Part shown: positions 285 through 27,933 of the stretch, piece after piece
How positions within the stretch are numbered: the first letter of the stretch is position 1
Layout of the letters: each line of letters begins with the position of its first letter
From: a virus
Direction: 5' to 3' (one strand)
DNA: 27,933 nt
IMG/VR virus record: IMGVR_UViG_3300035698_010282
Span: 1-27,933 of that record
The notes under the pieces: generated by a model
Seen by the model: only the letters and a program-made list of their open reading frames with translations
What the model was told of the DNA's origin: nothing
The model's database searches: none
Position numbers and translations under genes: made by a program

Positions 285-752
285 ATGAAAATCAAAGTAA
301 AGAAGTTGCATCCTGATGCTGTATTGCCTGTTGCTGCCACACCAACTGATGCAGGGTTTGATCTGGTAGCAATTGATGACGGAGAGATCAAAGATACGTA
401 CATTCAGTACAAGACTGGCATTGCTGTTGAGACCCCGCCAGGATTTCATACTGAAATCTTTCCTCGATCCAGCGTAAGCAAAACCAACCTAGTGCTTGCC
501 AATAGTATTGGCCTGATTGATGAGGGCTACCGTGGTGAGCTTTTGGTGCGATTTAAGATTGTCACAGAACAAGAAGAATCGTTTGTCGAAGGACAGCGAG
601 TAGTTAAAAACTTCGATCTCAAGAAATTCAAAAAAGGTGATCGAATAGCACAACTCGTGCTACGCAAGACTGAGCAAGCAGAATACGAATGGTCCGATGA
701 GTTGTCAGATACCCATCGAGGCACTGGAGGACTTGGGTCAACTGGTAGTTGA
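285..752 (+). CDS. dut: dUTP diphosphatase (dUTPase)
   Basis: This 155-residue protein has all five conserved motifs of trimeric dUTPases: motif 1 DAGFDL (22-27), motif 2 PRSS (60-63), motif 3 GLIDEGYRGE (76-85, with the catalytic Asp at 79), motif 4 GDRIAQL (118-124), and the C-terminal Gly-rich motif 5 RGTGGLG (145-151) that closes over the active site. The length is normal for the family. The enzyme hydrolyses dUTP to dUMP and pyrophosphate in the cytoplasm, keeping uracil out of phage DNA and feeding dTMP synthesis. The ATG is preceded by a good AGGAG eight bases upstream, overlapping the end of the HNH gene. A rho-independent terminator follows, so this is the last gene of the leftmost transcription unit. 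Confidence 0.97.
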   Translation: MKIKVKKLHPDAVLPVAATPTDAGFDLVAIDDGEIKDTYIQYKTGIAVETPPGFHTEIFPRSSVSKTNLVLANSIGLIDEGYRGELLVRFKIVTEQEESFVEGQRVVKNFDLKKFKKGDRIAQLVLRKTEQAEYEWSDELSDTHRGTGGLGSTGS

Positions 753-2762: not shown

Positions 2763-3176
2763 ATGGCAACCAACAATCATCAAATTAGTAATGCAGAGTT
2801 CTTGTACTATCAAGAGCAATTTGCCGAAGCTGCTTTAGCGGGGATCACCAGTGATGATCCACTACGTACTGCGGCTGCTACAGTTCAGTCTGTAGACACG
2901 ACTACATTTACCCCATCTCAATATGCTGAAGTTGTAGTGGCACGGAATGGTTTTGTGCAAGATTTACTACAAACAGCAGAGCAAGTGGACATAGATGCTA
3001 TATCACTTGCCCCAATGCAACCCGCTTTTGAGGGTTTGTCGGCTCATATTAGGGAATGGACAGGAGGAACCTTGGACGAATATTTAACCGACCAAGGACT
3101 TCAAGTTCACCCAACGTTTGCTGCGATTGCTGCATTGTCTGGAGAACCCATAAGTACAGCGAATATTGAAACGTAA
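2763..3176 (+). CDS. Small phage protein of unknown function
   Basis: A 137-residue mildly acidic protein, predicted mostly helical, without a recognisable domain, signal peptide or membrane segment. It starts two bases after the preceding stop, with a weak AAGAGA upstream, and ends just before the Shine-Dalgarno of TerL. Translation is therefore probably coupled on both sides. The C-terminal part contains TLDEYL, resembling TLDDWL in the preceding 615-residue protein; this may be a shared small module. The position directly before TerL would suit a small terminase subunit, but I see no helix-turn-helix and no sequence support for that. Confidence 0.75.
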   Translation: MATNNHQISNAEFLYYQEQFAEAALAGITSDDPLRTAAATVQSVDTTTFTPSQYAEVVVARNGFVQDLLQTAEQVDIDAISLAPMQPAFEGLSAHIREWTGGTLDEYLTDQGLQVHPTFAAIAALSGEPISTANIET

Positions 3177-3186
3177 GGAGCAAACG

Positions 3187-5091
3187 ATGCCGAAGAAGAA
3201 ATTAGAACACGCATCAAGTAGTATATTTAGCAAACTCAAGGAGAAAATATTACTTGATTCTGCCACAGATGAAGCATACCTACCGAGTATTATCGAGTTT
3301 TGTGAACATAAGAAATATCTAGATTTGGGAGCGCAAGATATTACTCTATTCCCAATGCAGCGTATTATTCTCAAAACGTTCTATAGAGGACAAATTGGAA
3401 ATGAGAAGCTTGGTCTTACAGAAGATGAGATCGAGTATCTGCATGACCACAAGATGGAGAACATTGCAGAAAAGTATCGCAGTGGAACTCTGTTTAGAGA
3501 GTTAGTACTTGTGTTGGGTCGTCGTAGTGGTAAAGACTTTTTGACCGCTCTTATGGCTTTGTACGAAGCATTGTGGTTGTTAGAAGTTCCTGGCGGAAGT
3601 CCATTCAAGTATTATAAGATGGCAGCCGGTAACCCAATTTACATTCTAACCATTGCTACATCAAGCGACCAGGCTCGAATTCTGTTTAATGAAATGAAAA
3701 CTCGTATTCAGTTGAGTGATTATTTCAAAAACAAAATAGGCAAGGTTGAGAGTGACCGTATTTGGTTGCTTACTCCTGAAGACAAGGCTAATAACAAGAA
3801 ATTGATAGAAGGTGGACTAGAGACCGCAACCACACCGGGAAGCGTGGTTGTGTTGTCCGGTCACTCTAACTCTGAAGGTTTGCGTGGAAAACGTATATTT
3901 GCCCTGCTGTTGGACGAGGTTGCTTCTTTTAAGTCAACGGGTGCTGTTCAGTCCGGTGACTTGATCTATCAGGCTTTGATACCTGCAACGGCAGACTTCA
4001 AGGCACCCGGAGGCAAGATTAAGCCTAACTCCAGAACTGAAGAATGCCCCGATGGTCTTCCACTTTTGGACTCGAAGATTATCAGTATTTCTTCACCACG
4101 AGCAGAAGAGGGTATTTTGTACAAGATGTACAAGGGTGCAAAAGAAGTACCAGAGAGACTTGTGTTTAAGGCTCCCACTTGGAAAGTAAACCTGAAGTTT
4201 ACTGAATCCATGTTGCGTCATGAGTTTAAGTTGATGAGTCCGGTTATGTTTGCAATGGAGTTTGGGGCTGAGTTTTCTGGTACCGCTGGTGAACTATTCA
4301 TTCCTGCAAAATATGTCGATCAAGCTCGTGAAATGGGTGCAAACATGGGGTTGTCGCAACGTATTGCAGGCAAGCCAGGATTGATATACTATGCTCACTT
4401 GGACCCTGCTGCCACTTCTCATAATTATGCCCTTATAGTTCTTCATATTGAAGATCGTATTCGAGTTAGAGAGAATGACAAGGGTATGAGGATACAAGAA
4501 AAGGTAAAGATGTTTGTTGTTGACCATATAATGGCGTGGCAACCATCGCTTGCTGATTCTATTAAGGTTGCCAAGATAGATGATTATATCATTCAGCTTG
4601 CTAAGCGGTTTAGATTTGCAATGGTATCCTATGACAGTTGGAATTCACTGTCAAGTATTCAAAAGCTACGAGCTAAGGGAATACCGAGCAAGATGACTCA
4701 ATTCCGCAAGCAGTACAAGATGCATATTTACGATCATCTTGAGCATTTATTGGTGAATAATCAGCTTGCATTACCAATTACAGGCCCGTGGGCAACCTAT
4801 ATGGAGCAGGAGTTGAAGCATCTGCAACGGGCTTATGGTCCACAGGGTTTCAAAATCAAGCCTGATGACGAAGCACCAGTGAATACGGATGATCTGTGTG
4901 ATGCGTTGGCAGGAGCATGTGGTATTGCTGTTGAGGCCACTTTTGCAGGATATCCGAAGGGTGGGACAGTATATGTTCCACAGAATCGCACTGTTGGGGA
5001 ACAGCAGTGGAAAGTAGGCGGTGGCGTCTACACCGGAGATCAGTGGAAATTTATGCATAGGAAGTTTGGCTATAATCCTGGTATGTCATAA
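3187..5091 (+). CDS. Terminase large subunit (TerL)
   Basis: This 634-residue protein is the ATPase-nuclease motor that packages DNA into the prohead through the portal. The ATPase half has a Walker A GRRSGKD (111-117), a Walker B ALLLDE (239-244, with Asp243 and the catalytic Glu244), and a coupling motif ISISSPR. The RNase H-like nuclease half shows three acidic positions in the expected order: HLDP (Asp406), VSYD (Asp483) and NTDDLCDA (Asp572). Length and order are normal for TerL. I chose ATG 3187 because AAGGAG lies six bases upstream; a TTG at 3166 in the same frame would overlap the previous gene and put the ribosome site inside the coding region. No intein is present, unlike in the portal gene downstream. 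Confidence 0.95.
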   Translation: MPKKKLEHASSSIFSKLKEKILLDSATDEAYLPSIIEFCEHKKYLDLGAQDITLFPMQRIILKTFYRGQIGNEKLGLTEDEIEYLHDHKMENIAEKYRSGTLFRELVLVLGRRSGKDFLTALMALYEALWLLEVPGGSPFKYYKMAAGNPIYILTIATSSDQARILFNEMKTRIQLSDYFKNKIGKVESDRIWLLTPEDKANNKKLIEGGLETATTPGSVVVLSGHSNSEGLRGKRIFALLLDEVASFKSTGAVQSGDLIYQALIPATADFKAPGGKIKPNSRTEECPDGLPLLDSKIISISSPRAEEGILYKMYKGAKEVPERLVFKAPTWKVNLKFTESMLRHEFKLMSPVMFAMEFGAEFSGTAGELFIPAKYVDQAREMGANMGLSQRIAGKPGLIYYAHLDPAATSHNYALIVLHIEDRIRVRENDKGMRIQEKVKMFVVDHIMAWQPSLADSIKVAKIDDYIIQLAKRFRFAMVSYDSWNSLSSIQKLRAKGIPSKMTQFRKQYKMHIYDHLEHLLVNNQLALPITGPWATYMEQELKHLQRAYGPQGFKIKPDDEAPVNTDDLCDALAGACGIAVEATFAGYPKGGTVYVPQNRTVGEQQWKVGGGVYTGDQWKFMHRKFGYNPGMS

Positions 5092-7557: not shown

Positions 7558-8290
7558 TGGCATACAACTCTTAGAGAGTGAGCTAAGTGCTTTTGATATC
7601 TATTCTACTAAGGGTGGTCGAGTTAGTATCCATGTAGGTGACGAATGTGTTAAAGTAAAGAATATGGATGAAGCCCTATCGTTAGTTCAAGATGGGGTTT
7701 ATGAACTTACCACACACATATGGGGTAAATGGAGTCAACTCAAAGATGTGGCAGAGTTGATTACCCACAACGACGCCGGTAATAACGGTGGATTAGAAAA
7801 CATACTATTCCTAGCTAATGTCAGAAAAAGCTTCGTACTGTCATCTTTATTCTCAGACCTTGATGAAATCAGAGATGTTGTACGGGTTTTATTCAACCAA
7901 GATGCATCTGATATTAGCGATCAACTTATTTCCCAATTCAATAAAACATACTTATCTATCAAATTACTGCATCGCATGATAATGCGAGAGTTGTATCGAA
8001 TTAAGCTTATCGTTCGCTTCAAAACTTTGCATAAATCTGCACAGATATCAGGCCCGTGGGCAAACCTTGATTTACCAATGAAGGAGCGAGCATGGGAGTG
8101 GGATGAGGGAGAGGACGAATACTTCTCACTGCGTCAAAAGTCTAGACGAGAGCAAGTACGATACAACCCCGAGTATACTAAGGATGGGTATTTCTATGTG
8201 TGGCAAGATTTAACTAGAGACCCATACAAGTTTGAGGATATGCAAAAGGACAGCCCGTACAAGAGCAGGCTGCTTTTAAGTGTGCCATAA
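7520..8290 (+). CDS. Unknown protein beginning with an FNLK tag
   Basis: A 256-residue protein. The N-terminus reads MFNLKQHSVGEDD, like the start and internal segments of the 831-residue protein at 15499. The middle (about 85-175) is helical and Leu/Ile-rich but too charged for membrane segments, and the C-terminus is rich in aromatic and charged residues (WEWDEGEDEYFSLRQKSRRE). No known family is recognised. ATG 7520 is preferred over the in-frame GTG 7514 because GAGG lies six bases before it. The stop and the next start share TAATG, implying translational coupling to the nucleotidyltransferase downstream. Confidence 0.8.
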   Translation: MFNLKQHSVGEDDGIQLLESELSAFDIYSTKGGRVSIHVGDECVKVKNMDEALSLVQDGVYELTTHIWGKWSQLKDVAELITHNDAGNNGGLENILFLANVRKSFVLSSLFSDLDEIRDVVRVLFNQDASDISDQLISQFNKTYLSIKLLHRMIMRELYRIKLIVRFKTLHKSAQISGPWANLDLPMKERAWEWDEGEDEYFSLRQKSRREQVRYNPEYTKDGYFYVWQDLTRDPYKFEDMQKDSPYKSRLLLSVP

Positions 8291-9090
8291 TGGATAAAAA
8301 CGACTCTATGAAAGAAATTCTCATCTATGAGGCTGTGGCAAAGCTGAAGTACTTTGCCAGGCTGTACGGCATAGAGTCTCTATTCATAGTGGGCGGCTTT
8401 TGTAGAGAGTTGTATTACAGAACGCTGTGGAGAACGAATGACATAGATGTGGCATCATCTTTTCATGAACAAGCAATTCAACTGGGTAATCTATTTGCTT
8501 CAGAGGTGTTGAATACTTCACCAGAGATTCACAGGACATCAGGAGCGTCAACAGTCACTTTCAAAAGTGATGCAGGTGAAATACGCATTGACTTCCAAGG
8601 TCAAAGCATTTGTCAGTATATGCACAACCAAGAAGTGCGACAATGGATGCACGACAATGGAATTGATGATGTCCCCTTAATGAATAACATATTTGGGCGT
8701 GACTTTACAATGAACTCGCTCATATATTCTATAGATGATGAAAAAGTTTATGATCCTACTGATTTAGGTGTCAAGGACTTGGAAAGAAAAGTTGTATCTT
8801 CGTTGTTGCCATCACATCTCCTAGTTAAGTACAACCCCATCGCCATACTGAGAGCAATTAGGTTTGCCCTTACCTATGATTTTCATATTGATGATGAAAT
8901 GCGATCAGCTATGAAAGATGGCAAAGATATTCTGTGTAAATCAATATCTACAGAGAGGATCATCAAGGAGATAGTGCGAATATTAAAGGTTGATGCAGAG
9001 CAAGGCATTGAAATGCTCCAGAAATACAATCTGGGCAAAATGCTGTTAGTGCCAGAGATTAAGCAGTATCTAGGAGATGGAGATGATTAA
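8290..9090 (+). CDS. Poly(A) polymerase / CCA-adding tRNA nucleotidyltransferase family
   Basis: This 266-residue protein belongs to the class II nucleotidyltransferase superfamily (PcnB/Cca), which adds nucleotides to RNA 3' ends without a template. Motifs appear in order: VGGFCRE (34-40), the metal-binding NDIDV (Asp51 and Asp53), RDFTMNSL (from Arg137), YDPTDLGVKDLERK, NPIAILRAIRFA, and STERIIKEI. It is shorter than bacterial enzymes (about 400 residues or more), keeping the catalytic head and neck but lacking most of the C-terminal RNA-binding part. Whether it adds CCA or poly(A) cannot be decided by eye. It overlaps its upstream neighbour by one base (TAATG) and has no strong ribosome site, so translation is probably coupled. 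Its place inside a head-gene cluster is odd. Confidence 0.9.
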   Translation: MDKNDSMKEILIYEAVAKLKYFARLYGIESLFIVGGFCRELYYRTLWRTNDIDVASSFHEQAIQLGNLFASEVLNTSPEIHRTSGASTVTFKSDAGEIRIDFQGQSICQYMHNQEVRQWMHDNGIDDVPLMNNIFGRDFTMNSLIYSIDDEKVYDPTDLGVKDLERKVVSSLLPSHLLVKYNPIAILRAIRFALTYDFHIDDEMRSAMKDGKDILCKSISTERIIKEIVRILKVDAEQGIEMLQKYNLGKMLLVPEIKQYLGDGDD

Positions 9091-9847: not shown

Positions 9848-10283
9848 CCGAATGCTCAAGGGTAAAGTAGAGAAGGATCACTACTGGTATGACCAGATTA
9901 GAAAAGTGATGTTTCATGGTAAGGGTGGAAGGTTGGAATATACCTATGATCCGATATCGAAGAGATCAGTACCCAGCATCGTAGACCACGAAGAGGAAAT
10001 GTGGCAGAATGACTACCCATTGCTTAAGGAGTGGGTAGAGAGCAAACAAGAAGAATACGGGTTTACTGTAGAAAGTGATACTGGTAAAAACATAGTCTTA
10101 AGCGTAGATGTCAGACGATTTGAAGAGATGTCTAGAGACTTGTTCGACAATAACATAATTTCAGATCATGATGCAACAGTGTTGCGTAGCGAGACAAAAC
10201 TAGCAGAGGGAAAACATGGCAGACTTGACAGTCACAATCGCAGACGATCCGTTTACCTTGGCGAAAGGGTTAATGGGAGTTAA
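9822..10283 (+). CDS. Unknown protein overlapping the DUF192-like gene
   Basis: A 153-residue charged protein, with a Tyr/Trp/His-rich N-terminal third (KDHYWYDQIRKVMFHGKGG) and an acidic helical middle. No family is recognised. ATG 9822 has GGGGA six bases upstream; a TTG at 9816 is less likely. The last 22 codons overlap the following gene by 68 bases in another frame, longer than any other overlap here, and encode a very basic tail (GRLDSHNRRRSVYLGERVNG). This suggests loss of an older upstream stop. Confidence 0.7.
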   Translation: MEVVLQSHNRMLKGKVEKDHYWYDQIRKVMFHGKGGRLEYTYDPISKRSVPSIVDHEEEMWQNDYPLLKEWVESKQEEYGFTVESDTGKNIVLSVDVRRFEEMSRDLFDNNIISDHDATVLRSETKLAEGKHGRLDSHNRRRSVYLGERVNGS

Positions 10284-10584
10284 AAAGATGCCTGCCGATG
10301 AAGGTATGCTCTTCAAATTTCCCATGTTCCTAGAAGCAGGCTTCTGGGGAAAAGACACATATATTCCTTTGGATATCGCATTTATAGATGACAACAATAA
10401 GATTACATCTATCCGTGAGATTACCCCTATGTCAACTAGGTCGGTTAGAAGTGAAGGCAAGTGTGTAATGGCTATAGAAGCCAACCTTGGTTTCTTCAAA
10501 CGTAATGGAATTGACGTTGGACAAAAAGTAATAGTTGTGTCCAAGGACGACAATACCGCAGAGATTTCTTTCAAAGAGGGCTAA
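10216..10584 (+). CDS. DUF192-family protein
   Basis: This 122-residue protein matches the DUF192 pattern: KGLMGVKKMPADEGMLFKF, then FWGKDTYIPLDIAFID, then ITSIREITPMS, and a C-terminal VMAIEANLGFFKRNGIDVGQKV. In the usual family the second segment reads fWMknT-x-hPLDhhFhd, so Met is replaced by Gly here. DUF192 proteins are small beta-rich proteins of uncertain function, often exported in bacteria. This copy has no signal peptide, so it acts in the cytoplasm or virion. AGAGGG lies five bases before the ATG. It lies inside the overlapping phage gene run and is not an obvious cargo insertion. Confidence 0.8.
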   Translation: MADLTVTIADDPFTLAKGLMGVKKMPADEGMLFKFPMFLEAGFWGKDTYIPLDIAFIDDNNKITSIREITPMSTRSVRSEGKCVMAIEANLGFFKRNGIDVGQKVIVVSKDDNTAEISFKEG

Positions 10585-15498: not shown

Positions 15499-17994
15499 GT
15501 GGCATTTAACCTCAAAAAGTATTCAGATAGTGTGCCAGTCGTTGATGCTGGACCTAGCATTCAGGAGGGATTTGATACTCTAGGGGATTTGTATCAGCCA
15601 GATGAGACTGCTAATTTGCATACTCAAGATGTGCTGGATCAGTCCACTAACCCAGACCAAGATCGAATATTGCAGCAATCTCAGAATTTACCTCTGATAC
15701 AAGAGTTGGAAACAATTCTTGCACAGGTTGAACCTGGATATGCTAATGCGATACGGCAACAACCGGAAATCAATGCCTTATTGGAAGCAGATGATTTATC
15801 GGCATTGCGTCAAAAAATTGATGAGGATCAGCTTGGCCCAATAGTTGAACAGTTCGACAAAAATGTTGACAGGGCCATTCAACCTCACGAGTTGCAATCT
15901 TATGTAGACGGTGTTGTGGCCGACATGAGGGCAGCCGAGGAGCAAAAACAGATTCAATTAGAGCAGGCTCAGCAGGCTCAGATGGCTAAAAGAACAACTG
16001 CTCAAATAATGGCTCCTGACCCTGTAGACGAAACAGAGAAGGGGCAATTTATTCAGCGTTATCTTGATCCTCTTTTGTCTTATCAGGGAGGTAAAGGTCC
16101 AAGAGATAGCGCTGCGGAGGAAACGAAGCAGGAAATACTGGGTGCAGTTAGTCCAATGCTTCAGAACGATGCCAATGATGCTTTGGAGTCAATCCAAACA
16201 TTAAACATCCAAGAACGTGACAAAGCAGGACACATACTTGGCTTAGTATTCGAGAACTTCGTTGCCCCTGCTGCATTAGAAACTAGCGCTGTGGAGCAAC
16301 CAGTTATGAGTGAACTTAACCCAAAAGGCATCATCAAGTTTGATTTAAGCGATCATGTCTTAAACAATAAAAAAGAAGCAATGGTCAAAACTGCTGCCGA
16401 CCAGTTTGGTCAGCAATATGTGCTGTATGGCCCAACCGAAAAACGTATCTGCCCCAAGTTAAGAGCTAAGGGCGTAGGTGACGTTGTTTCTGAATACATC
16501 TGTCGCCATCATTGCCTTGATGGTATCGTAATTGATGACAACAAAACTATTTGTGGCGAAGCCTTATGGCGCGCCAATGCTATGGATAAGTTCTCTCGTG
16601 AATACGTCAACGAAGATGGCGATATTCAAGGTGGTTATCTAAACAAGCGGTTTGAGATCAATCGTAACGTCCCTGAAGAAAACAAGATGAGACTCAAGCC
16701 TGGTGAGACGCGCAAGCCCCGACCGGCATCTACTTTCGGCAACATGGAAGCTCGCATGCAAGAGATGCGAGAGAAGGAAGCCAAAAAAAGAGGATACGAG
16801 CCCGATTCAGATACCTCGCCTCCATTTGAGTGGTGCCACGATCAAGATCAAAACAACGTAGAGCAGACGCAATCAACTCGCAATAGCCGAGAAGAAGCTG
16901 CTGGTCACAAACTAGCACCGGGTCAAGGCCCAGAGAATAACCCAAAGAAGGCATTTAACCTCAAGGCATTCAAAACTGCTAAGAGAGATCAACTAGCCAA
17001 AGAGATCAAAGAGACTCACGACGATGACGATCCAGATCAGTTGGCAATAGAAATCAAGAAAACTCACACCGAAGCCAAAGTTGCATCGGCAGTAGAGAAT
17101 GATGATATCAAGAAGGTTGAAACCAAAGATTTTCCCACTGATCCAGTCAAACCTGACAAGCCCTGTGGCACATGCAGAGCCACCGTCAACAAGTCTTTCA
17201 ATATGAAAAGGCATGCAGAAGGTGTGAATACTATTGTCACAGAGGATGGCAAGCCTATAGAGCCAGAAGAAGATGAAATCAGAGACGATAATCATCATTC
17301 CCGAAATAAGAAGGCAGATGCATTTGATTTTTTGAAAAGAAATCCTAAACCCAAAGCATCAGGTGACTGCCCTTCCTGTGGAGAACCATTTGACAACCCT
17401 GATGGAACTTGGAAAATGTGTCGTCACTGCCGAAAACAAGAGTATACACAACCGGATGGTGCATCTAGAGTTGTGAATGACAAAAGCTCCTTTAATCTGA
17501 AGGACTTTAAGCTCGCATCTAAAAAAAAAAACTTAACCACTGCTAATCAGATACAAGTCACTGATCCCTTCGAGCGTGCTGTAGGCAAGGGCAATGCTGT
17601 AGCGCCAGTTGCACGCGGAGTTGGCACAGCACTACAAAAACAAAAGCAGGAGTGGGACAAAAGACAGCAAGAAAAGCAATGGCGTCAGCACATGAATGAC
17701 ATGACTGGCCGCCAACAACGTGGCGAATTAGGTGCAACACCGCAAACACCTCAAGTTGCTCCACCTACCAAATCTAAGCCAATGCAGGCACCCAGAGTCA
17801 AGGTGACTCCAGAGATACTGTCTGTGTTCGAAGGTGATAAAGATGAAGTTCTTGACTTCATTGACTCACTAAACAAGCACGAACTCAGTATAATGGAACG
17901 CAACTGTGATAACCCAGATGTTATCAAAAGACTCAGAATACGGGTCCGTAGTGATATTGAAGAAACAGCCAAAGATTTGGCGATGGAGGATTAG
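15499..17994 (+). CDS. Large multi-segment protein with FNLK tags and Cys clusters
   Basis: This 831-residue protein starts with GTG, directly after the previous stop, with GGGA six bases upstream; the open frame reaches back to 15400, but that part overlaps the previous gene. The N-terminus reads MAFNLKKYSDS, and related tags recur at 485-494 (AFNLKAFKTA), 566-572 (SFNMKRH) and 664-673 (SFNLKDFKLA), as if several ORFs with the same N-terminal tag had been joined. Cys groups suggest metal sites: one cluster near 315-355 containing CRHHC, a CGTC at 556-559, and a four-Cys zinc-ribbon pattern at 624/627/641/644. Long helical Gln/Glu stretches lie at about 50-200. An A11 run lies at codons 675-678. 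No family is recognised. Confidence 0.75.
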   Translation: MAFNLKKYSDSVPVVDAGPSIQEGFDTLGDLYQPDETANLHTQDVLDQSTNPDQDRILQQSQNLPLIQELETILAQVEPGYANAIRQQPEINALLEADDLSALRQKIDEDQLGPIVEQFDKNVDRAIQPHELQSYVDGVVADMRAAEEQKQIQLEQAQQAQMAKRTTAQIMAPDPVDETEKGQFIQRYLDPLLSYQGGKGPRDSAAEETKQEILGAVSPMLQNDANDALESIQTLNIQERDKAGHILGLVFENFVAPAALETSAVEQPVMSELNPKGIIKFDLSDHVLNNKKEAMVKTAADQFGQQYVLYGPTEKRICPKLRAKGVGDVVSEYICRHHCLDGIVIDDNKTICGEALWRANAMDKFSREYVNEDGDIQGGYLNKRFEINRNVPEENKMRLKPGETRKPRPASTFGNMEARMQEMREKEAKKRGYEPDSDTSPPFEWCHDQDQNNVEQTQSTRNSREEAAGHKLAPGQGPENNPKKAFNLKAFKTAKRDQLAKEIKETHDDDDPDQLAIEIKKTHTEAKVASAVENDDIKKVETKDFPTDPVKPDKPCGTCRATVNKSFNMKRHAEGVNTIVTEDGKPIEPEEDEIRDDNHHSRNKKADAFDFLKRNPKPKASGDCPSCGEPFDNPDGTWKMCRHCRKQEYTQPDGASRVVNDKSSFNLKDFKLASKKKNLTTANQIQVTDPFERAVGKGNAVAPVARGVGTALQKQKQEWDKRQQEKQWRQHMNDMTGRQQRGELGATPQTPQVAPPTKSKPMQAPRVKVTPEILSVFEGDKDEVLDFIDSLNKHELSIMERNCDNPDVIKRLRIRVRSDIEETAKDLAMED
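16951..17517 (+). repeat. Internal FNLK-type peptide tags
   Basis: Three internal copies of an F-N-(L/M)-K tag begin at 16951, 17194 and 17485-17488, matching the N-terminus encoded at 15502. The 15502 and 16951 copies share 14 identical bases, GCATTTAACCTCAA. Each is followed within a few residues by basic sequence and preceded by a charged linker. A fifth copy opens the protein at 7520. Confidence 0.6.
17521..17531 (+). other. A11 homopolymer in coding sequence, possible slippage site
   Basis: Eleven consecutive A followed by C sit inside the 831-residue gene. In the reading frame the end of the run reads A-AAA-AAC, a known -1 slippery heptamer. A -1 slip meets TAA at 17544-17546, and a +1 slip meets TAA at 17534-17536. 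Either would give a roughly 680-residue product without the C-terminal 150 residues. Whether slippage happens is not shown. Confidence 0.4.
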
Positions 17995-17995
17995 G

Positions 17996-18793
17996 ATGAG
18001 TCAAAAGAAGAACATATGCACAAAGCTTCTTGAAGACCTCTACGTTGCCAAAAAAATGTCTTCAACAGAAATATCAAAATTCTTGCAAAACCAGGGTGAA
18101 GACATTAAACCTTGGATTGTATCTCGACGACTAAAAGAACTAGGAATGACTCGAAATATGTCACAAGCTCTATTGGTTAAAGATTTTCGGAAACCCACTC
18201 TTAAATTGTCAGGAAAAGAGATAGAAGCTTTGGATGGTTTTTTGTTAGGAGACGGACACATTCAGCGGCGATCCTCAAGATCAGGACGATTATCTTTGAC
18301 TGTGCAACATGCAGAATTTGGTAATTACCTGCTATCTCATTTTAATCGTTATTCTCCCAAAGGCAGACAGCGATATATTAGCTCGAAAAGATACCAAAAA
18401 ACGTTATCTCAATGGTCGGGGGAAACCAAATCGGATCGATGTTTTTTAGATCAGAGAAACAGATGGTATCCTCAGAATGTCAAACGTATTCCTAAAGACG
18501 TACATTTAACACCATTGTCTATGTTGCTGTGGTATCTTGGTGATGGGCATTATGTGCCCCGAGACGGATGCATTTTCCTAAATACTCAAAGTTTTATAAT
18601 TGAAGATGTTAAATTTTTGTGCTCTAAGTTGAACGACATTGGAGTAGATTGTCATAGAGATAAACGAAACAAGATATACATTGGCGCTAAAAGTGCTCAT
18701 CTGTTTCTGAGTTTACTTGCTGACAACCCTGTTCAGTGTTACCAATACAAATTTAGAGCCTTGGAATCGTCTGCCACTTTGGTAGACGGATGA
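17996..18793 (+). CDS. Free-standing LAGLIDADG homing endonuclease
   Basis: This 265-residue protein has two LAGLIDADG motifs, LDGFLLGDG (79-87) and LLWYLGDG (177-184), each ending in the acidic residue that binds the catalytic metal. It is therefore expected to act as a monomeric two-repeat DNA endonuclease. The N-terminal 65 residues (LLEDLYVAKKMSSTEISKFL, then WIVSRRLKELGM) resemble a helix-turn-helix DNA-binding element often added to homing enzymes. ATG 17996 is preceded by GGAGG at six bases; longer in-frame starts overlap the previous gene. No intein splicing motifs flank it. It lies 18 bases before the portal gene, which itself contains two LAGLIDADG inteins. The target is most likely in this neighbourhood in phages lacking the element, which is inference. 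Confidence 0.9.
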   Translation: MSQKKNICTKLLEDLYVAKKMSSTEISKFLQNQGEDIKPWIVSRRLKELGMTRNMSQALLVKDFRKPTLKLSGKEIEALDGFLLGDGHIQRRSSRSGRLSLTVQHAEFGNYLLSHFNRYSPKGRQRYISSKRYQKTLSQWSGETKSDRCFLDQRNRWYPQNVKRIPKDVHLTPLSMLLWYLGDGHYVPRDGCIFLNTQSFIIEDVKFLCSKLNDIGVDCHRDKRNKIYIGAKSAHLFLSLLADNPVQCYQYKFRALESSATLVDG

Positions 18794-18811: not shown

Positions 18812-21800
18812 ATGGGCAATCTAATACTACCAGATGATCCTAATTACAAACAACCCCTGATTATGGGCGACCCATATGCGAATGCATTGACTCCGAAGTT
18901 AGCTCAACAAAAAAGAATTCAAGAGTTAGATGATGAAAGAGGAATGGGAGGCGGAAATTTCAAGTACGCCAGTAGTGCTATAGCTTCCTCTGCTGATGCC
19001 AGATTTACTGGGTTTATGAAAAATGCCCAGATGACTGGCACCAGCAATATGATGGGCCAACCTATGTGGTTCAGCCCTCTGCATACCCCCCAGAACTGGC
19101 AGATTGCCAGTAAGCGACGTGAAATTTATCAGTGGTGCAGGTTCTTCTACGAGAATGAGCCGAAGGTAGCTGCTGCTATTGACTTCTATAGTCGTTTCCC
19201 AATGAATGGGTTTAAGATTGAATGTGAAGACCCCAAGGTTCTGAAGTACTTTGAACGCAAAGTTTCAGGTCGCACTGGAAAACCAGGCCCTCTGGAGTTG
19301 AATGAAAACTTCAAGATGATTTCTTCCGAGTATTTCATGCTCGGTGATGTCTTTGTACATACGGACATTAAATGTCCTGTATGTTCTGGTCAAGGTGCTG
19401 ATCCCGCTACAGGTGAAAGATGTAATCACCCAGGCGGTCTCATTAAGTCAATCAAGATTCTTAATCCAGACTGGATGGAAGTACAACAATCAATTCTCGC
19501 AGATGAGCCATCTATTGTTATGGTTCCAGACGAAGAACTGAAGCGCATTGTATTCTACAAGCAACCCAAGAACGTTTATGACAGCATTCCAGATGCGGTG
19601 AAGAAACTGGTTATCCAGAATAAGCCGATCCCGATGTCCAACAGGACTATATCGCACATCAAGCATATGCCTGTCCCATATGGAACTTACGGCTCGTCGT
19701 TGGTTCGTCGTCTGTTTACTACTCTAGCCTACAAGACTAAGATCATGACTGCCAACTGGATTGTTGCAGAGCGTTTGATCCTTCCGGTCAGAGTTGTCAA
19801 GATTGGTAGTGATAACCGTCCAGCTACTTCCGCAGACATTGCTGATATACAGCAACAAATTGCGGCTACCGCTAACGATCCTAACCTAACCATTGTTACT
19901 CACCACAACTTTGAGTATGAATGGTATGGCGCAGCAGGCAAGATACTCCAAGTAACGCAAGAGATGGAAAATATTGGCAAGGAAATCCTAGACGGTTTCA
20001 TGCTCAACCAATCGTTGCTCAACGGTGAGATGTGCATACCTCAATATGACCGCATGCTCACAAGAGATGGATTGAAATCTTTATCTCAGATTTCTAAGGA
20101 TGACGAGATTGCCACATTTAACAAAGAAACTGGAATGCTTGAGTATCAGAAGCCAAGTGCTATTCATGTCTATGATTATGATGGCGAGTTGATGCATTTC
20201 CAAACTGATCGAATTGATTTTGCTTGCACTCCAAATCATAGAATGTTGTATCAGAAGCGAGACCATGATGAGTGGATTGTCGATACAGCAGATAAGGTCC
20301 GTGATAGAGCAAAATTCAGAAAGACAGTATCATGGGGTGGATCGGATTGGATAAAAGACTTAGATACAACTTGCACTAAAATAGCAGGTAAAGAGGCAAC
20401 ATTCCGTGAGCTTCTAAAAATTGTCGCTTACTATGTATCTGAAGGACATATTCAGAAAGAAACACGTAAAATTAGAAGTACTTATGGAAATCCACAAAGT
20501 GTTCAAATATCCCAAACAGAAAAAGGTAAGGGATGGGATGATCTGTGTGAACTAAGAAAAACATCTCGAATTAAGGTTTCCAAGACACGACACGGGTTTG
20601 CTATACATAATACTGAATTCGCAAAGATAATGCATGATTCATGTGGTCATCTTAGTCACAATAAGTTTGTTCCACAATGGATAAAGCAACAATCTGTAGA
20701 AACACTGCAATTATTCTTGGGATATCTCATCAACGGTGATGGATCGTTACGAACCAGAGATAAGCACGGGCCGAAGAAGTACTATACCTACTACACCAAT
20801 AGTATGCAACTTCGTGATGATGTCATGGAAATTGCTTTGAAGTGTGGCTACTTCCCACGGTTCCGCAAGCGCAGAACTATATGGGAAATAACATTCTCCG
20901 ATTATGATCTTGGCAAAGAAACTATTCCACTTGAGTCCAAAAAACATGATACCATCACCAAGATGCCATACAAAGGCAAGGTGTGGTGTGTAACGGTTCC
21001 AAATAGTTTCATTATTACAGAACGCAACGGAAAGTTGACAATTAGTGGAAACTCAGGTTATCAGTCGGCTCAGGTCGGTGTTGAAACCCTTATTCGTCGT
21101 ATCGAATCGTGGAGAAGTACTCTTGGTGAATGGGCTCACAAGAATATATTCAAGCCTGTAGCAGAGATGCAAGGGTTTGTTGATGAAGAAGAAAGTGAAG
21201 AAACAGGTGAAACTGTCTTCATGTATCCGACCATCAAGTGGAACGATCTAAACCTCAAAGACAAGACGCAATGGTATCAGTTGTTAAACCAACTGCATGA
21301 TAAGCAACTACTTTCTTCCCAGACGCTACTTGAAGAATTAGACCTTGACTACGATCAAGAAGTCAAGAGACAGCGCTTTGAGCAAATGCAGTCCGGTCCT
21401 GCTGGCGCTGCTATGGGTCAACCTCCGGGTGGCATGGACCCAATGGGCGGCATGGGTGGAGCGCCAGGCGGAATGCCGGGTGACCCAGCCGCAGCAGGCA
21501 TGGACCCAATGGGTGGCATGGGCGGAGCCGCAGACGCAGGAATGATGGGTGGAGCCGGTGCGGGTGGAATGGCCCCAGGCGGTATGGCACCAATGGCTGA
21601 AGGTGGCAAGGTGCAGAAGAAAGGTAAGCAAAAATCTCAGCAGCAAGAAGAAATGCCTGCTGAAGCTATGCCTATGATAAAGCTCACAAGTATTGAGCAA
21701 GAGATGGCTGGCATTCTAACAAGTCTTGCCGAAGTGTACCAGCTTAATCCACAATTTATTAAGGCTCAGTTCCCTGTGCAAAACCCAACTGGAGCAAAGC

Positions 21801-23290
21801 CATACGCTATTGATTTCGCGTTACCACACTTGAAAATAGGAGTAGAGTGCCTACATCCAGAACAATTGACAATGACCAAATGTGGGTCAAAGTTTGCTAA
21901 GGACATAACTCATAAAGATGAACTATTAGATAGAAATGGGAAATTCACTAAGATTAAGAATGTAATCCGAAATAAATATGATGATGATCTAATGGTTATT
22001 AAACCCCTTGGATTACGTCCAATCAAAGTGACAAAAAATCACCCGTTCATGGTATGTCATCCTAAAAAATCCAGAGTGCTAAGAGAAGAACCTACAGTAA
22101 CTAGGACTAGATCGTATATATCCCCTGATGGAAGTAATGAATTTGTTAACGCTTCTGAAGTCAAGAAGGGCGATTACTTGATGATTCCTAAAACAAGATG
22201 GAAACGAGAACAATATAGAATCGATTTGCGTGATTATCATGGCAAAGCCCATAATGCTGCAAAGTTGCCACAATGGTTGGCGCTTGATTATGACTTGGGA
22301 TGGTTGCTTGGTATTTATGCAGCGGAAGGATGTGCTAACTACAAGCGATCTGCTATAGAATTTTCGTTTAACATAAAAGAAACGGAGTTAATAGCTAGAA
22401 CGCAAAACATATTAGAATCGAAATTTAACCTGAAATCTCGGGTTGCAAATTATCCAGAAGACAATGTTGCTAAAGTTATTGTATGTTGCAATGGTTTGGC
22501 TAGGTGGTTTGTAGATAACTTTGGTCTGCATGCACCAGAGAAACAATTACCTGCATTCATATTGCATGCACCACGACAAACTCAGGATGGATTTATCCAA
22601 GCCTTTATGGAAGGGGATGGATGCATTCGACCGGAATCAGGAGATTACAGGATGATCTCTTCTTCTGAACGACTGCTTACAGACATGCAATTTTTGGTAT
22701 TTAACATGGGGCATTTTGCCACTCTATCACAAAGCAGAAAACCAAAATTGTCTATGATTCTTGGTCGTGAATGTACCACACGCGGGTTGTGGGAATTAAC
22801 AATTAAGTTTGGTGGTTACACTAAAGCAAAACATCGGGAAGATGAATGCTATTATTACGTTCCAGTTAATGGAATTACTACCGAACGTTATGACGGGGTT
22901 GTAGTTAACTTTGAAACTGAAGATCACACTTACTGTGCTGGTCATGTTGTCACACATAATTGTGATGGTGATGTTTGGCATAGTAATCCTGAACAAAAAG
23001 AGAGTGATAAACAAAGGGATTATTTATTAGCTCAACGTGGATGGACTGTTTTGCGGTTTGATGACAAAGCTATAGAGGATGCAAGGCAGGCTGTTCAGAA
23101 TACTATAGGTACGTATATAGGCAAAGCAATGAAAGGCGGCAGTAAGACTGCCAGTAAGACAGAGATAGTTATTCCGTTGCTTTATACTTTGAAAAAAGAC
23201 AAGTTATTCACAATGGGTAGCCATGCCGAATACTTGGGTAGATTTTACAAGGCTGGCATCAAACACGACGAAGGAAGGCTTACCAAATGA
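18812..23290 (+). CDS. Portal protein with two inteins and C-terminal nuclease-like domain
   Basis: This 1492-residue precursor has exteins 1-407, 748-1012 and 1384-1492, giving a 781-residue mature product. The first extein and the start of the second look like a portal, the dodecameric ring at the head vertex through which DNA enters: MWFSPLHTPQNWQIASKRRE, a YFMLGDVFV strand, SHIKHMPVPYG, LLNGEM joined to SGYQSAQVGVETLIRRIESW, and a stem-like helical segment. A CPVC-x12-C-N-H group (Cys188, Cys191, Cys204, His206) may bind zinc. Then comes a Gly/Met-rich linker (about 866-935) and a C-terminal domain resembling DUF559/Vsr-like nucleases. The ATG has AGGTG upstream. The stop overlaps the next gene (ATGA). 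The portal call rests on motif order and on position between TerL and the protease. Confidence 0.88.
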   Translation: MGNLILPDDPNYKQPLIMGDPYANALTPKLAQQKRIQELDDERGMGGGNFKYASSAIASSADARFTGFMKNAQMTGTSNMMGQPMWFSPLHTPQNWQIASKRREIYQWCRFFYENEPKVAAAIDFYSRFPMNGFKIECEDPKVLKYFERKVSGRTGKPGPLELNENFKMISSEYFMLGDVFVHTDIKCPVCSGQGADPATGERCNHPGGLIKSIKILNPDWMEVQQSILADEPSIVMVPDEELKRIVFYKQPKNVYDSIPDAVKKLVIQNKPIPMSNRTISHIKHMPVPYGTYGSSLVRRLFTTLAYKTKIMTANWIVAERLILPVRVVKIGSDNRPATSADIADIQQQIAATANDPNLTIVTHHNFEYEWYGAAGKILQVTQEMENIGKEILDGFMLNQSLLNGEMCIPQYDRMLTRDGLKSLSQISKDDEIATFNKETGMLEYQKPSAIHVYDYDGELMHFQTDRIDFACTPNHRMLYQKRDHDEWIVDTADKVRDRAKFRKTVSWGGSDWIKDLDTTCTKIAGKEATFRELLKIVAYYVSEGHIQKETRKIRSTYGNPQSVQISQTEKGKGWDDLCELRKTSRIKVSKTRHGFAIHNTEFAKIMHDSCGHLSHNKFVPQWIKQQSVETLQLFLGYLINGDGSLRTRDKHGPKKYYTYYTNSMQLRDDVMEIALKCGYFPRFRKRRTIWEITFSDYDLGKETIPLESKKHDTITKMPYKGKVWCVTVPNSFIITERNGKLTISGNSGYQSAQVGVETLIRRIESWRSTLGEWAHKNIFKPVAEMQGFVDEEESEETGETVFMYPTIKWNDLNLKDKTQWYQLLNQLHDKQLLSSQTLLEELDLDYDQEVKRQRFEQMQSGPAGAAMGQPPGGMDPMGGMGGAPGGMPGDPAAAGMDPMGGMGGAADAGMMGGAGAGGMAPGGMAPMAEGGKVQKKGKQKSQQQEEMPAEAMPMIKLTSIEQEMAGILTSLAEVYQLNPQFIKAQFPVQNPTGAKPYAIDFALPHLKIGVECLHPEQLTMTKCGSKFAKDITHKDELLDRNGKFTKIKNVIRNKYDDDLMVIKPLGLRPIKVTKNHPFMVCHPKKSRVLREEPTVTRTRSYISPDGSNEFVNASEVKKGDYLMIPKTRWKREQYRIDLRDYHGKAHNAAKLPQWLALDYDLGWLLGIYAAEGCANYKRSAIEFSFNIKETELIARTQNILESKFNLKSRVANYPEDNVAKVIVCCNGLARWFVDNFGLHAPEKQLPAFILHAPRQTQDGFIQAFMEGDGCIRPESGDYRMISSSERLLTDMQFLVFNMGHFATLSQSRKPKLSMILGRECTTRGLWELTIKFGGYTKAKHREDECYYYVPVNGITTERYDGVVVNFETEDHTYCAGHVVTHNCDGDVWHSNPEQKESDKQRDYLLAQRGWTVLRFDDKAIEDARQAVQNTIGTYIGKAMKGGSKTASKTEIVIPLLYTLKKDKLFTMGSHAEYLGRFYKAGIKHDEGRLTK
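20033..21052 (+). mobile_element. Intein 1 in portal body, LAGLIDADG type
   Basis: A 340-residue intein (precursor residues 408-747). Block A starts at Cys408 (CIPQYDRMLTRDGLKSL), block B holds TPNH (Thr473-His476), and the end carries block F VWCVTVPNSFIITERNGK and block G ISGN, with Asn747 followed by Ser748 as the +1 nucleophile. The penultimate residue is Gly instead of His, a variant seen in other phage inteins. Two LAGLIDADG motifs (VAYYVSEG 538-545 and LGYLINGDG 636-644) mark an apparently intact homing endonuclease. Splicing would join LLNGEM to SGYQSAQ, restoring a continuous portal segment. The open frame throughout shows it is an intein, not an intron. Confidence 0.92.
21434..21529 (+). 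repeat. Direct repeat in Gly/Met-rich linker
   Basis: Two 30-base copies encoding MDPMGGMGGA, at 21434-21463 and 21500-21529, differ at three bases. They lie in a stretch richer in GC than the flanks and encode the flexible linker between portal body and nuclease-like domain. The repeat explains long antisense reading frames seen here, which are not genes. Confidence 0.8.
21797..23130 (+). other. Nuclease-like domain (DUF559/Vsr-like) split by intein 2
   Basis: After removal of intein 2 the portal C-terminus reads KPYAIDFALPHLKIGVE joined to CDGDVWHSNPEQ, then KQRDYLLAQRGWTVLRF and a helix AIEDARQAVQNTI. This is the order of DUF559-like PD-(D/E)XK enzymes: Asp on a strand, E-x-D-G on the next strand, W-H, a helix with D/R, and G-W-x-V-L-R-F. 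Candidate catalytic residues are Asp661, Glu672 and Asp674 in mature numbering (Asp1001, Glu1012, Asp1385 in the precursor). Members include patch-repair endonucleases and restriction-like nucleases. Activity here is predicted, not shown. Confidence 0.75.
21848..22960 (+). mobile_element. Intein 2 in nuclease-like domain, LAGLIDADG type
   Basis: A 371-residue intein (precursor residues 1013-1383). Block A begins at Cys1013 (CLHPEQLTMTKCG), block B is VTKNHPF (Thr1074, His1077), and the C-terminal blocks read YDGVVVNFETEDHTYCAGHVVTHN, with the classical His-Asn end and Cys1384 as the +1 nucleophile. LAGLIDADG motifs lie at 1162-1173 (LGWLLGIYAAEG) and 1262-1270 (IQAFMEGDG). All parts needed for splicing and homing appear intact. 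It lies between Glu1012 and Cys1384-Asp1385 of the host domain, that is, inside the predicted catalytic E-x-D. By eye it is more AT-rich than the adjacent linker. Confidence 0.93.
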
Positions 23291-23694
23291 TAGAAGTCAC
23301 AGCCGGTCGTAGGCGCATCAAAGAGAAAGGCATTAAATGGGATGAACACTACGGTGAAAAGTCCAAAGATGTCAAGCATAAGTTCGAAAAAATGCTACCG
23401 GGATCATATTTCAGGTGGGTAGGTAAGGACTATGAGGATGCTTGCTGGCGATATGTAGTTGTAGGACCGGCTATTTCCAAAAGGGAAGGCAAGGCTTTTT
23501 TCGCGGGCAACAAGAAGATGCCTGACGATCCAAAGAAGAAAGCATATTCACCTTCAGGAAAATACTTCCCATCAGTACGAGCAGCTATTTCGTATGCAAT
23601 CGAGATGTGGGGAGTACGCATGCCAGAAGATGCAGGGCAATGGACTAAAGATGATTTGGCACCATTGGATATTCCGAAGCACGTTAAGAGTTAA
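23287..23694 (+). CDS. Small basic protein of unknown function
   Basis: A 135-residue protein rich in Lys, Trp and Tyr. It contains RWVGKDYEDACWRYVVVGP, then KKKAYSPSGKYFPSVRAAISYAIEMWG, suggesting a compact alpha/beta fold. No family is recognised. Its ATG overlaps the portal stop (ATGA), so it is translationally coupled to the portal and is probably needed with it. It ends two bases before the next start. Confidence 0.8.
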   Translation: MIEVTAGRRRIKEKGIKWDEHYGEKSKDVKHKFEKMLPGSYFRWVGKDYEDACWRYVVVGPAISKREGKAFFAGNKKMPDDPKKKAYSPSGKYFPSVRAAISYAIEMWGVRMPEDAGQWTKDDLAPLDIPKHVKS

Positions 23695-26600: not shown

Positions 26601-27449
26601 GGTAGTGCAGAGGGCATGTTGAAGCGTCTTGTTAAATCCAACAACTGGCAGGATGCATTGAGTGAATTTGAGAACCGGTTCCCAACACTGCAAAAACAAC
26701 TTAACATGGTTATTATGCCGATTAATGCTCGCTTCGATCTATTAGAATTGAGTGCTAAGAGGGCAATCGACAATGTTCGTAAGAAGTTAGAGCAGGAGCC
26801 ACCTCCAGATTTGGCGGGTAAACCTTCTGCTATGAAGACTTCGTTTGAGATTATTCTTGAGCAGGCTAATGGATCAACATCTGTAATGTCAACAGACAAC
26901 TTAGATGGTGATGCAGAAAACTTAAGCAATCGTATTAACGATATCAAGTCTAACAATGGTGATGAGACACTGAGTATTCCTGGCGAGGCTGGGGAAATTG
27001 GCGCTCCACAACCGGGTATGGGTGATGCTGTAGAAGCTCCAGATAGTGGAGCACCGGCAACTGAGCGTATTGAAGACTCGACTGGATCACCGCTGCCGCC
27101 TGTACCGACGCCAAATATTCAGACCACTCAACCTGTGATGCCACCGGCAACTCCGGGTGCTGATGGACCTATTCCAGAACCTCAACCTTCTGTGCCTACG
27201 ACTCAATCTGTGCCGATTCCAGAAGAAAAAAAGGTTCCAAAGTCTATGCCGGTCAATAATACTGATGACCTGTTTATTGGTAAGGACAAATCTAAGCGAC
27301 AGTTGATTAGGAATCCATCGCATAAGTCATCGGTTGTTGACAGATTAGAGAAGGTTTCCAACGAATTAGACAAGCGAGGTATCGCCGTACTGGCCGACAA
27401 AATTGACCTTCTACTATGGAAGTTAAAAAATGCTAATAAAGACAGCTAA
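23697..27449 (+). CDS. Very large probable virion protein, unknown family
   Basis: A 1250-residue protein, the longest unspliced product here. It begins with basic helices (about 1-55), has an ordered mixed region to about 1060, a Pro/Thr/Gly-rich low-complexity linker (about 1100-1190), and a C-terminal helix pair SSVVDRLEKVSNELDKRGIA followed by LADKIDLLLWKL (about 1213-1245). That terminal motif recurs in the protein at 11166. No enzyme motif, signal peptide or membrane segment is visible. The start shares the TAACTATG junction seen at 2763, with only a weak ribosome site, implying coupling. Its position between the portal and the putative prohead protease suggests a head or injected internal protein; this is inference. 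Confidence 0.8.
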   Translation: MSDSKIKQHLIKEASRRVELAKKNHVPMTNAELKIKFLRDAETRLAKLQKHSMALNTGYSSLNTATWNLSWEYPDVGPKSAAIKRDIEENFQPYMKEKAEGGILKPIKGGLYRYEAPNLEGDSEKSNEPLATLVMRFRYRRHIKPTHDEGASAIADDAIQEVSKLLGFDVNEFISDLEENSVSLNPYFHASILSEEKGGSIRNDDLLKFLEVESERYLSSPNSDLLGVNSQNFYEDHRHKEGMLQVAKQRQKEGNGMKFSNDEVSELNYDSYILRAIANKVRQGYALNVQNLRDQMHRDIEMQMSVSQMSTDELQLAQLKSGQRIKAIWDAFDNGTTLAEMPMTPEQKVNLKSMIEAMQSASGPEKTKIMNSIMKLAAPPKRDSLLHWGIQMRNGKLKYRTGLEVVGGSSRQIKSSLNTSDLRLLLTNLTSDALDYFTQWRGGKNINVPQFNQDYVTWSSQQKDQYNVGRNEFYVPNFSVWFSSNGLDSDPGTSEKMPVVPMLRKLPAWKGGRGDVVYDRDTVNLGRNHLAKNWNKVAVDNSSGRAQRVIKPALSAVVQKWGLASTDAIRKLSSLSGEAPFSGNTDDPSVADAAWRVAMANRTGAETVFEDLIQKYGDDYASLDKDVLDRSLATALETYYEYNPKLEDSDENKPLFRIFANGLPDPQDMVAWQRMAEGITGLGRSMSNKNPCKNAITKYVTAMNAEGVDDGNKLNEATKLVNKVYDLYKNNLPSNPLLPMIQEYKQTGEWGRMAKYIDNHIDSVTASDQDTKIDEQGWRMFSQFGYGLAKMMDFVSCLMHASCGEKLPSGGRGMEQPGEDEIFGRHYSTSSGKGDGGQIMIGIHYAFNADEVSADPDDASLTDEQRAEAKVVQGMINKERARRLNSYHIRKGNNTYRKSSWWERLEDRTAVVRGEEVLLGEHTPWPYGAPQSELNEEALRQAYDTGRTGTKVRTIKVIETLDYFIGEAGSAEGMLKRLVKSNNWQDALSEFENRFPTLQKQLNMVIMPINARFDLLELSAKRAIDNVRKKLEQEPPPDLAGKPSAMKTSFEIILEQANGSTSVMSTDNLDGDAENLSNRINDIKSNNGDETLSIPGEAGEIGAPQPGMGDAVEAPDSGAPATERIEDSTGSPLPPVPTPNIQTTQPVMPPATPGADGPIPEPQPSVPTTQSVPIPEEKKVPKSMPVNNTDDLFIGKDKSKRQLIRNPSHKSSVVDRLEKVSNELDKRGIAVLADKIDLLLWKLKNANKDS

Positions 27450-27933
27450 ATATTCACTAATCGATGCACAACCACTGAACATTCCAGTGTTTGAAGGTCA
27501 AACATCTTACCTGAAGGCCGATGTTAATTTGTTTGATAACAATGTCTTACAGGAGACACTGAATGTCATAAAGATGGCATCAAACAAGTCTGCCGAAATG
27601 GAGACTGACGGAGATAGTCCAGATTTTGACCTAGAGGCTGAAATAAAGTCTCATCCCGATTCTCTTTATGTGAAATGTTTCGCTATCAAAGCGGACGAGA
27701 CCAACGATAACGGAGACCATTTCCAGAAGGATGAGTTGAAGAAGGCTACTCCTACATTTATAGGGTGTCCGGTATTCACCAACCATAACAACAGTGATGC
27801 TGAGGAAGCCAGGGGTAAAGTAGTACATTCTTGGTGGACTGATGACAAAAATGGCATCATGATTATTGCTCGTGTGGATGCTGAAGCTTATCCTAAGCTT
27901 GCCCGTGGCATTAAAGAAGAATACATTATGGGA
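27430..27933 (+). CDS. Putative prohead maturation protease, 3' end outside window
   Basis: The first 168 residues are visible, with the frame open to the window end. After a variable N-terminus comes VKCFAIKADETNDNGDHF, KKATPTFIGCPVFTNHNNSD, GKVVHSWW, then GIMIIARVDAEAYPKLARGIKEEYIMG. This matches caudovirus prohead serine proteases: a segment promising a modified allele, a G-x-P-h-x-x-x-H with the catalytic His, a G-x-V strand, and an A-x-x-I-x-x-G-x-h-x segment after which the nucleophilic Ser normally follows within a few residues, here beyond the edge. These enzymes cleave scaffold and capsid N-termini during head maturation. The ATG overlaps the previous gene by 20 bases, with GGAAG upstream. 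The major capsid gene is expected downstream. Confidence 0.75.
   Translation, partial: MLIKTAKYSLIDAQPLNIPVFEGQTSYLKADVNLFDNNVLQETLNVIKMASNKSAEMETDGDSPDFDLEAEIKSHPDSLYVKCFAIKADETNDNGDHFQKDELKKATPTFIGCPVFTNHNNSDAEEARGKVVHSWWTDDKNGIMIIARVDAEAYPKLARGIKEEYIMG

What the first reader, a model, noticed from the sequence alone, without database searches (positions are those of the whole stretch)
18812..23290. Portal protein fused to a PD-(D/E)XK-like nuclease domain
With both inteins removed, the product is a portal body, a Gly/Met-rich flexible linker, and a C-terminal domain with the D...E-x-D-G...W-H...G-W-x-V-L-R-F order of DUF559/Vsr-like nucleases. A nuclease tethered to the DNA-entry ring could trim or nick packaged or injected DNA, attack host or rival DNA, or take part in headful cutting. 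I know of no standard portal with this domain. The domain order is seen in the sequence; family and activity are inferred.
Basis: partly seen in the sequence, partly recalled or inferred. Interest (0 to 1): 0.85.

Follow-up and report, generated by a model that had tools for sequence, protein, structure and literature searches.

The report
Phage portal carrying a DNA-cutting domain
In a group of very large, uncultured bacterial viruses, the ring protein through which DNA enters the virus head carries a conserved, apparently working DNA-cutting enzyme on a flexible tether, an arrangement not found in any annotated phage searched here.

Summary
ORF 18812-23290 encodes a portal with two inteins. 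The mature 781-residue protein is a T4-gp20-type portal, a Gly/Pro/Met-rich linker of about 93 residues, and a C-terminal DUF559/MTES_1575 PD-(D/E)XK domain (both above Pfam cut-offs). AlphaFold gives the alpha-beta-beta-beta-alpha-beta core (pLDDT 90). The nearest solved structures are the I-Bth0305I homing-endonuclease domain, PvuRts1I, AbaSI and Vsr. A portal-only search of IMG/VR found the same tail in 75 of 75 untruncated relatives, on contigs up to 494 kb, many intein-free. Catalytic D, E, H and D are invariant in 78 distinct sequences. dN/dS is about 0.06, and portal and nuclease trees agree (r 0.86). The 81 nuclease-bearing portals form one clade; phage-G-like portals lack the domain, and no annotated phage shows the fusion. 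The window's terminase keeps its own nuclease residues, so this is not a displaced terminase nuclease. By T4 analogy the domain should hang inside the head. Best guess: a housekeeping, portal-tethered endonuclease that nicks or trims DNA during packaging or maturation. A nuclease injected into the host remains possible. Activity, substrate and location are inferred.

The parts
18812..20032 (+). Portal body, first extein (mature residues 1-407)
   Evidence: phrog_16240 portal 2.4e-30; Bacillus phage G gp14 33% identity, 7e-48; fold of the relative L039 matches T4 gp20 and other portals
20033..21052 (+). Intein 1 with LAGLIDADG endonuclease, between NGEM and SGY
   Evidence: Pfam LAGLIDADG_3 4.3e-17; boundaries from the intein-free extein in L002 and L039
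21053..21388 (+). Portal body, second extein, up to about ...RQRFEQM
   Evidence: portal HMM match to residue 859 of the ORF
21389..21667 (+). Gly/Met/Pro/Ala-rich linker (about 93 aa) with the basic GKVQKKGKQK motif
   Evidence: clade linkers are 86-140 aa, median 105, 34% Gly, 12% Pro, 11.5% Met; motif [IV]xK[KR]GK common in the clade
21668..21847 (+). Nuclease domain, N-terminal part with catalytic D (mature D661) and E (E672)
   Evidence: DUF559 / MTES_1575; D and E invariant in 78 sequences
21848..22960 (+). Intein 2, inserted inside the catalytic E|C-D-G motif
   Evidence: Pfam Intein_splicing 2.4e-8; same site occupied in 6 of 81 loci; uninterrupted in L001
22961..23134 (+). Nuclease domain, C-terminal part with D674, H679, D688, R691, D692 and the GWTVLRF strand
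   Evidence: structure of the L001 equivalent
23135..23287 (+). C-terminal extension after the nuclease domain (about 51 aa)
   Evidence: variable in length and sequence among relatives
23287..23694 (+). 135-aa gene overlapping the portal stop; conserved next to the portal across the clade; no known family
   Evidence: found in 136 of 140 fused loci, the other 4 being cut off within 54 bases of the portal end; not found beside nuclease-less portals
3166..5091 (+). Terminase large subunit with its own nuclease acids (D413, D490, D575/D576)
   Evidence: phrog_2 terminase 2.2e-24 over residues 111-592; acids conserved with the LR745208 terminase
27430..27933 (+). Start of a head maturation protease-like gene, cut by the window end
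   Evidence: weak phrog_18299 head maturation protease match 9.9e-4; a similar gene is complete in L006

Best explanation
A phage portal protein has permanently acquired a C-terminal PD-(D/E)XK endonuclease (DUF559/MTES_1575, EDxHD/Vsr-type fold) on a flexible Gly-rich tether. After the inteins are spliced out, up to 12 copies should hang from the portal ring into the head. There they are placed to act on the DNA that passes through or lies at the portal. I think it is a housekeeping enzyme of the virion that nicks or trims DNA at the portal during packaging or head maturation, supplementing the terminase nuclease, which is still present. Shown: the domain architecture, the predicted fold, invariance of the catalytic residues, strong purifying selection, one-clade distribution and co-inheritance with the portal. 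Inferred: catalysis itself, location inside the head (from T4), the substrate, and the step at which it acts.
For: Pfam calls above cut-off; predicted fold and PDB matches. D, E, H and D invariant in 78 distinct sequences. dN/dS median 0.062 for the nuclease against 0.040 for the portal in 15 close pairs. 75 of 75 untruncated portals found by portal-only patterns carry it. 81 fused portals form one clade apart from 16 nuclease-less portals, support 0.83. Portal and nuclease tree distances correlate, r 0.86 against a permutation maximum of 0.22. Universal retention without loss fits a housekeeping role better than an optional weapon. In 6 of 81 loci an intein sits exactly in the catalytic E|C-D-G motif; inteins typically persist at active sites of essential proteins (general knowledge). 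T4 precedent: GFP fused to the portal C-terminus lies inside the prohead, and up to about half of the 12 positions tolerate it (PMC10893049, PMC9958956). T4-like phages also use a separate REase-fold nuclease, gp4, for packaging (PMC7824862).
Against: No activity, virion proteome or structure of the assembled portal exists. A free nuclease inside the head would threaten the packaged genome unless it is specific, gated or limited by its tether; no such control is shown. Release of the domain by a head protease has not been excluded. The full-length portal model is poor (mean pLDDT 62.9), so the position of the C-terminus rests on homology. The second D of E-x-D is E or C in 4 of 78 sequences. 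Monophyly support is moderate (0.83).
Confidence: 0.5

Rival explanations
1. Injected effector: the linker is cut by the head protease, the nuclease is left free in the head, enters the next cell with the DNA and attacks host or competitor DNA, much as MuF toxins are proposed to do.
For: A head protease-like gene lies nearby. MuF head proteins near the portal carry nuclease toxins followed by small downstream ORFs (PMC5576092). Here a 135-aa gene directly follows the portal wherever there is room.
Against: The domain is one conserved type, co-inherited with the portal and never seen lost, unlike polymorphic toxins. No MuF domain was reported. The downstream gene may simply be a clade gene. No conserved protease site was identified.
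Confidence: 0.25
2. Portal-tethered resolvase: the nuclease debranches recombining DNA so packaging does not stall, as T4 endonuclease VII does while bound to gp20.
For: T4 endonuclease VII associates with gp20 and releases stalled branched DNA (PMC10893049, PMC9958956). RuvC was found in phage G (7.7e-23) but in none of nine clade records of 164-494 kb. RusA, RecU and Hjc were not found either.
Against: The portal C-terminus should lie inside the head, whereas branches stall outside it. The records may be incomplete, a weak Endo I match exists in one, and the Endonuclease_7 search had no positive control. To my knowledge DUF559 is not a known resolvase family.
Confidence: 0.12
3. Domesticated or selfish homing endonuclease: the domain came from an EDxHD homing endonuclease and still acts mainly for gene spread or exclusion of rival phages.
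For: Closest PDB match is the I-Bth0305I catalytic domain. Free-standing viral relatives are zinc-finger EDxHD-like proteins or lie inside inteins.
Against: Universal, vertical and co-inherited rather than sporadic. Homing would not need covalent attachment to the portal. This may well be its origin, but probably not its present role.
Confidence: 0.1
4. Non-catalytic DNA-binding or structural module.
For: No activity has been shown. Tethered DNA-binding at the portal could help order DNA.
Against: Invariance of D, E, H and D in 78 sequences is what catalysis, not mere binding, demands.
Confidence: 0.03

Closest known systems
T4-type portal, gp20; Bacillus phage G gp14
   Same: Portal fold; phage G gp14 is the nearest named portal, 33% identity, also with a disordered-looking Gly/Pro-rich tail
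   Different: Phage G gp14 and its relatives carry no nuclease and end in the Gly/Pro-rich tail
EDxHD homing endonuclease I-Bth0305I / Vsr / PvuRts1I nuclease domains
   Same: Same fold and similar order of catalytic residues
   Different: Those are free-standing, intron-linked, repair or restriction enzymes; here the domain is fixed to a virion protein and inherited vertically
T4 gp4 head-completion nuclease
   Same: REase-fold nuclease of the head needed for packaging besides the terminase nuclease (PMC7824862)
   Different: Separate gene and TnsA-like family; not fused to the portal
T4 endonuclease VII bound to gp20
   Same: A nuclease held at the portal (PMC10893049)
   Different: Different family, non-covalent, and acting on DNA that has stalled outside the head
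MuF polymorphic toxins of temperate phages
   Same: Portal-associated head protein with C-terminal nuclease and a small downstream ORF (PMC5576092)
   Different: MuF domain rather than portal; variable toxins rather than one conserved nuclease

Membership tests
Tailed-phage portal | Sequence profile of portal proteins | tested here: met
   phrog_16240 2.4e-30, phrog_2833 1.4e-12
Tailed-phage portal | Portal fold | tested here: met
   L039 relative matches Pakpunavirus, T4, 812 and lambda portals, best E 3.6e-9; the model is low-confidence
Tailed-phage portal | Dodecameric ring at one vertex | not testable with these tools
   needs cryo-EM
DUF559 / MTES_1575 PD-(D/E)XK nuclease | Profile score above curated cut-off | tested here: met
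   42.7 and 37.2 bits against 38.2 and 20.6; all 53 domains match both families
DUF559 / MTES_1575 PD-(D/E)XK nuclease | alpha-beta-beta-beta-alpha-beta core | tested here: met
   L001 domain, pLDDT 90.4
DUF559 / MTES_1575 PD-(D/E)XK nuclease | Catalytic residues D...E-x-D and H | tested here: met
   D, E and H 78/78; second D of E-x-D 74/78
DUF559 / MTES_1575 PD-(D/E)XK nuclease | Metal-dependent DNA cleavage | not testable with these tools
EDxHD homing endonuclease | Catalytic-domain fold | tested here: met
   3r3p, E 2.2e-4, probability 1.00
EDxHD homing endonuclease | Mobile, sporadic distribution | tested here: not met
   75/75 retention, co-inheritance with the portal
MuF polymorphic toxin | MuF domain | tested here: not met
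   no MuF match reported in Pfam scans of the protein
MuF polymorphic toxin | Variable toxin domain | tested here: not met
   same nuclease family in every relative
MuF polymorphic toxin | Small ORF directly downstream | tested here: met
   136 of 140 loci, the rest cut off; its role is unknown
T4 endonuclease VII | Endonuclease_7 domain | tested here: not met
   the fused domain is DUF559/MTES_1575
T4 gp4 head-completion nuclease | Stand-alone TnsA-like head protein | tested here: not met
   the domain is fused to the portal and matches other families

The most novel reading that the evidence does not exclude
A clade of huge phages carries a ring of up to twelve active endonucleases inside the head, tethered to the portal, as an essential part of genome packaging; in some members the nuclease is kept inactive until an intein lodged in its active site splices out.
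Probability: 0.3. Interest if true: 0.9.

Novelty: new variant of a known kind. Interest (0 to 1): 0.78.

Why it matters
Portals are treated as conduits, with cutting left to the terminase. A conserved, fused nuclease in a widespread group of large phages would add an enzymatic step at the portal. It would also give a concrete, expressible domain with which to ask what DNA processing packaging needs beyond the terminase. It may instead reveal a virion-borne nuclease delivered to cells.

Tried and rejected
Displaced terminase nuclease: rejected, since the window's terminase keeps its nuclease acids. Assembly or frame artefact: rejected, since many relatives are single intein-free ORFs. Fusion in annotated phages: none found with tail or whole-protein queries; the Lak phage match inspected is a free-standing Vsr-like protein, not a portal. 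Relatives in GTDB genomes: none in two scans, so no host is known. The Endonuclease_7 search had no positive control, so its negative says little. PDB sequence search with the portal profile gave only a weak SPbeta YonE match, and with the terminase none. Papers: no report of a portal-nuclease fusion turned up in the open-access library, which lacks most subscription journals.

Full report
Observation. The ORF at 18812-23290 encodes 1492 residues. Two inteins, at 20033-21052 and 21848-22960, leave a mature protein of 781 residues. Relatives that lack one or other intein read straight through the junctions, so the splice boundaries are secure. Splicing itself is inferred. Pfam finds MTES_1575 (6e-11) and DUF559 (2.8e-9) in the mature protein, both above cut-off. 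PHROGs finds portal (2.4e-30). Between them lies a Gly/Met/Pro-rich linker.

What the domain is. A 140-residue model of the L001 tail, which has no intein, built with 53 aligned domains, has mean pLDDT 90.4 and the order helix, three strands, helix, strand, helix. Foldseek's best PDB matches include the I-Bth0305I homing-endonuclease catalytic domain (E 2.2e-4), PvuRts1I, AbaSI, NGO0050 and Vsr. A profile search by sequence also finds NGO0050 (2e-10) and I-Bth0305I (1.6e-7), with the D...E-x-D-G...H...D residues aligned in NGO0050. All 53 domains match both Pfam families.

Portal. The nearest named portal is gp14 of Bacillus phage G, 33% identity. The full L039 model is weak overall (62.9) but Foldseek still returns portals of Pakpunavirus P7-1, T4 and phage 812, best E 3.6e-9.

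Distribution. Portal-only patterns were used to scan IMG/VR, so the search did not depend on the nuclease. Of 80 loci kept (the best of 102), 75 have the nuclease in the same ORF and the other 5 run off the stretch held. Contigs reach 494 kb. Of 81 distinct fused proteins, 26 show no intein. Portals without the domain are all outside this group: phage G and its relatives, and more distant portals. In a tree of 81 fused and 16 nuclease-less portals the fused ones form one clade, support 0.83. This points to a single gain with no detected loss. No record among 50,697 annotated phages shows the fusion by the searches made.

Selection. D, E, H and D of the active site are identical in 78 distinct sequences, as are several residues around them; the second D of E-x-D is D in 74, E in 2 and C in 2. 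In 15 close pairs the median dN/dS is 0.062 for the nuclease and 0.040 for the portal; many dS values exceed 1, so these ratios are rough. Portal and nuclease tree distances correlate at r 0.86, permutation maximum 0.22. The nuclease evolves about twice as fast as the portal but with it.

Linker and intein site. Linkers are 86-140 residues, median 105, 34% Gly. A short basic motif, [IV]xK[KR]GK, precedes the nuclease in most. Six of 81 loci, the window included, carry an intein at precisely the same place, between the catalytic E and the C of E-C-D-G. In those genomes the nuclease should not be able to form its active site until splicing (inference).

Neighbours. The terminase large subunit is at 3166-5091 (phrog_2 2.2e-24); its nuclease acids D413, D490 and D575/D576 are kept in the LR745208 terminase. 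A head maturation protease-like gene begins at 27430. The 135-residue gene at 23287-23694 overlaps the portal stop. It was found in 136 of 140 fused loci (duplicate records included), the remaining four being cut off, and not near nuclease-less portals. Because much of the gene order is shared within the clade, this does not prove a functional link.

Location. In T4 the stem, wing and crown lie inside the capsid, and GFP fused to the portal C-terminus lies inside the prohead, with up to about half of the positions occupied without loss of prohead function (PMC9958956, PMC10893049). A tethered nuclease can therefore plausibly be accommodated, and should face the head interior. This is inference by homology.

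Mechanism. I favour a housekeeping DNA-processing role in packaging or maturation because of universal retention, purifying selection and co-inheritance. T4-like phages show that a second REase-fold nuclease, gp4, can be needed for packaging (PMC7824862). The injected-effector reading is the main rival, by analogy with MuF toxins (PMC5576092). A resolvase role is suggested by RuvC in phage G but not in nine clade records and by the failure to find RusA, RecU and Hjc. It is weakened by topology, by possibly incomplete records, and by a weak Endo I match. A homing-endonuclease ancestry is likely from the fold and from free-standing relatives, but the present distribution is not that of a mobile element.

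Verdict. The architecture is established at sequence and predicted-structure level. Catalysis, site and substrate are not. I class it as a new variant of a known kind: a portal with a built-in nuclease.

Noticed in passing
window 20033-21052, 21848-22960; L002, L003, L057, L082: The portal gene is an intein hot spot: 55 of 81 distinct portals carry at least one and four carry four.
   Followed up: partly
L002 3960-5174, L003 3887-5089, L007: The intein at YQW|C appears to begin with D, Q or S rather than Cys, so it may be an unusual class of intein; splicing type not tested.
   Followed up: no
window 17906-18793: Free-standing LAGLIDADG_2 homing endonuclease directly upstream of the portal.
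   Followed up: no
window portal, CPVCSGQGADPATGERCNHPGG segment: Zinc-finger-like insertion present in many fused portals and gapped in phage-G-like portals; some members have lost the cysteines.
   Followed up: no
L093-L113: Free-standing relatives: zinc-finger plus DUF559 proteins that look like EDxHD homing endonucleases; in L102 and L106 the domain lies inside intein-like insertions.
   Followed up: partly
L071, L075, L080, L088: The second D of E-x-D-G is replaced by E or C in these four portals; activity there is doubtful or differently built.
   Followed up: no
records holding L159 and L160: A second DUF559 ORF of 303 aa in two of the large contigs.
   Followed up: no
window 285-752, 8290-9090, 10216-10584: dUTPase, tRNA nucleotidyltransferase and DUF192 genes.
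   Followed up: no
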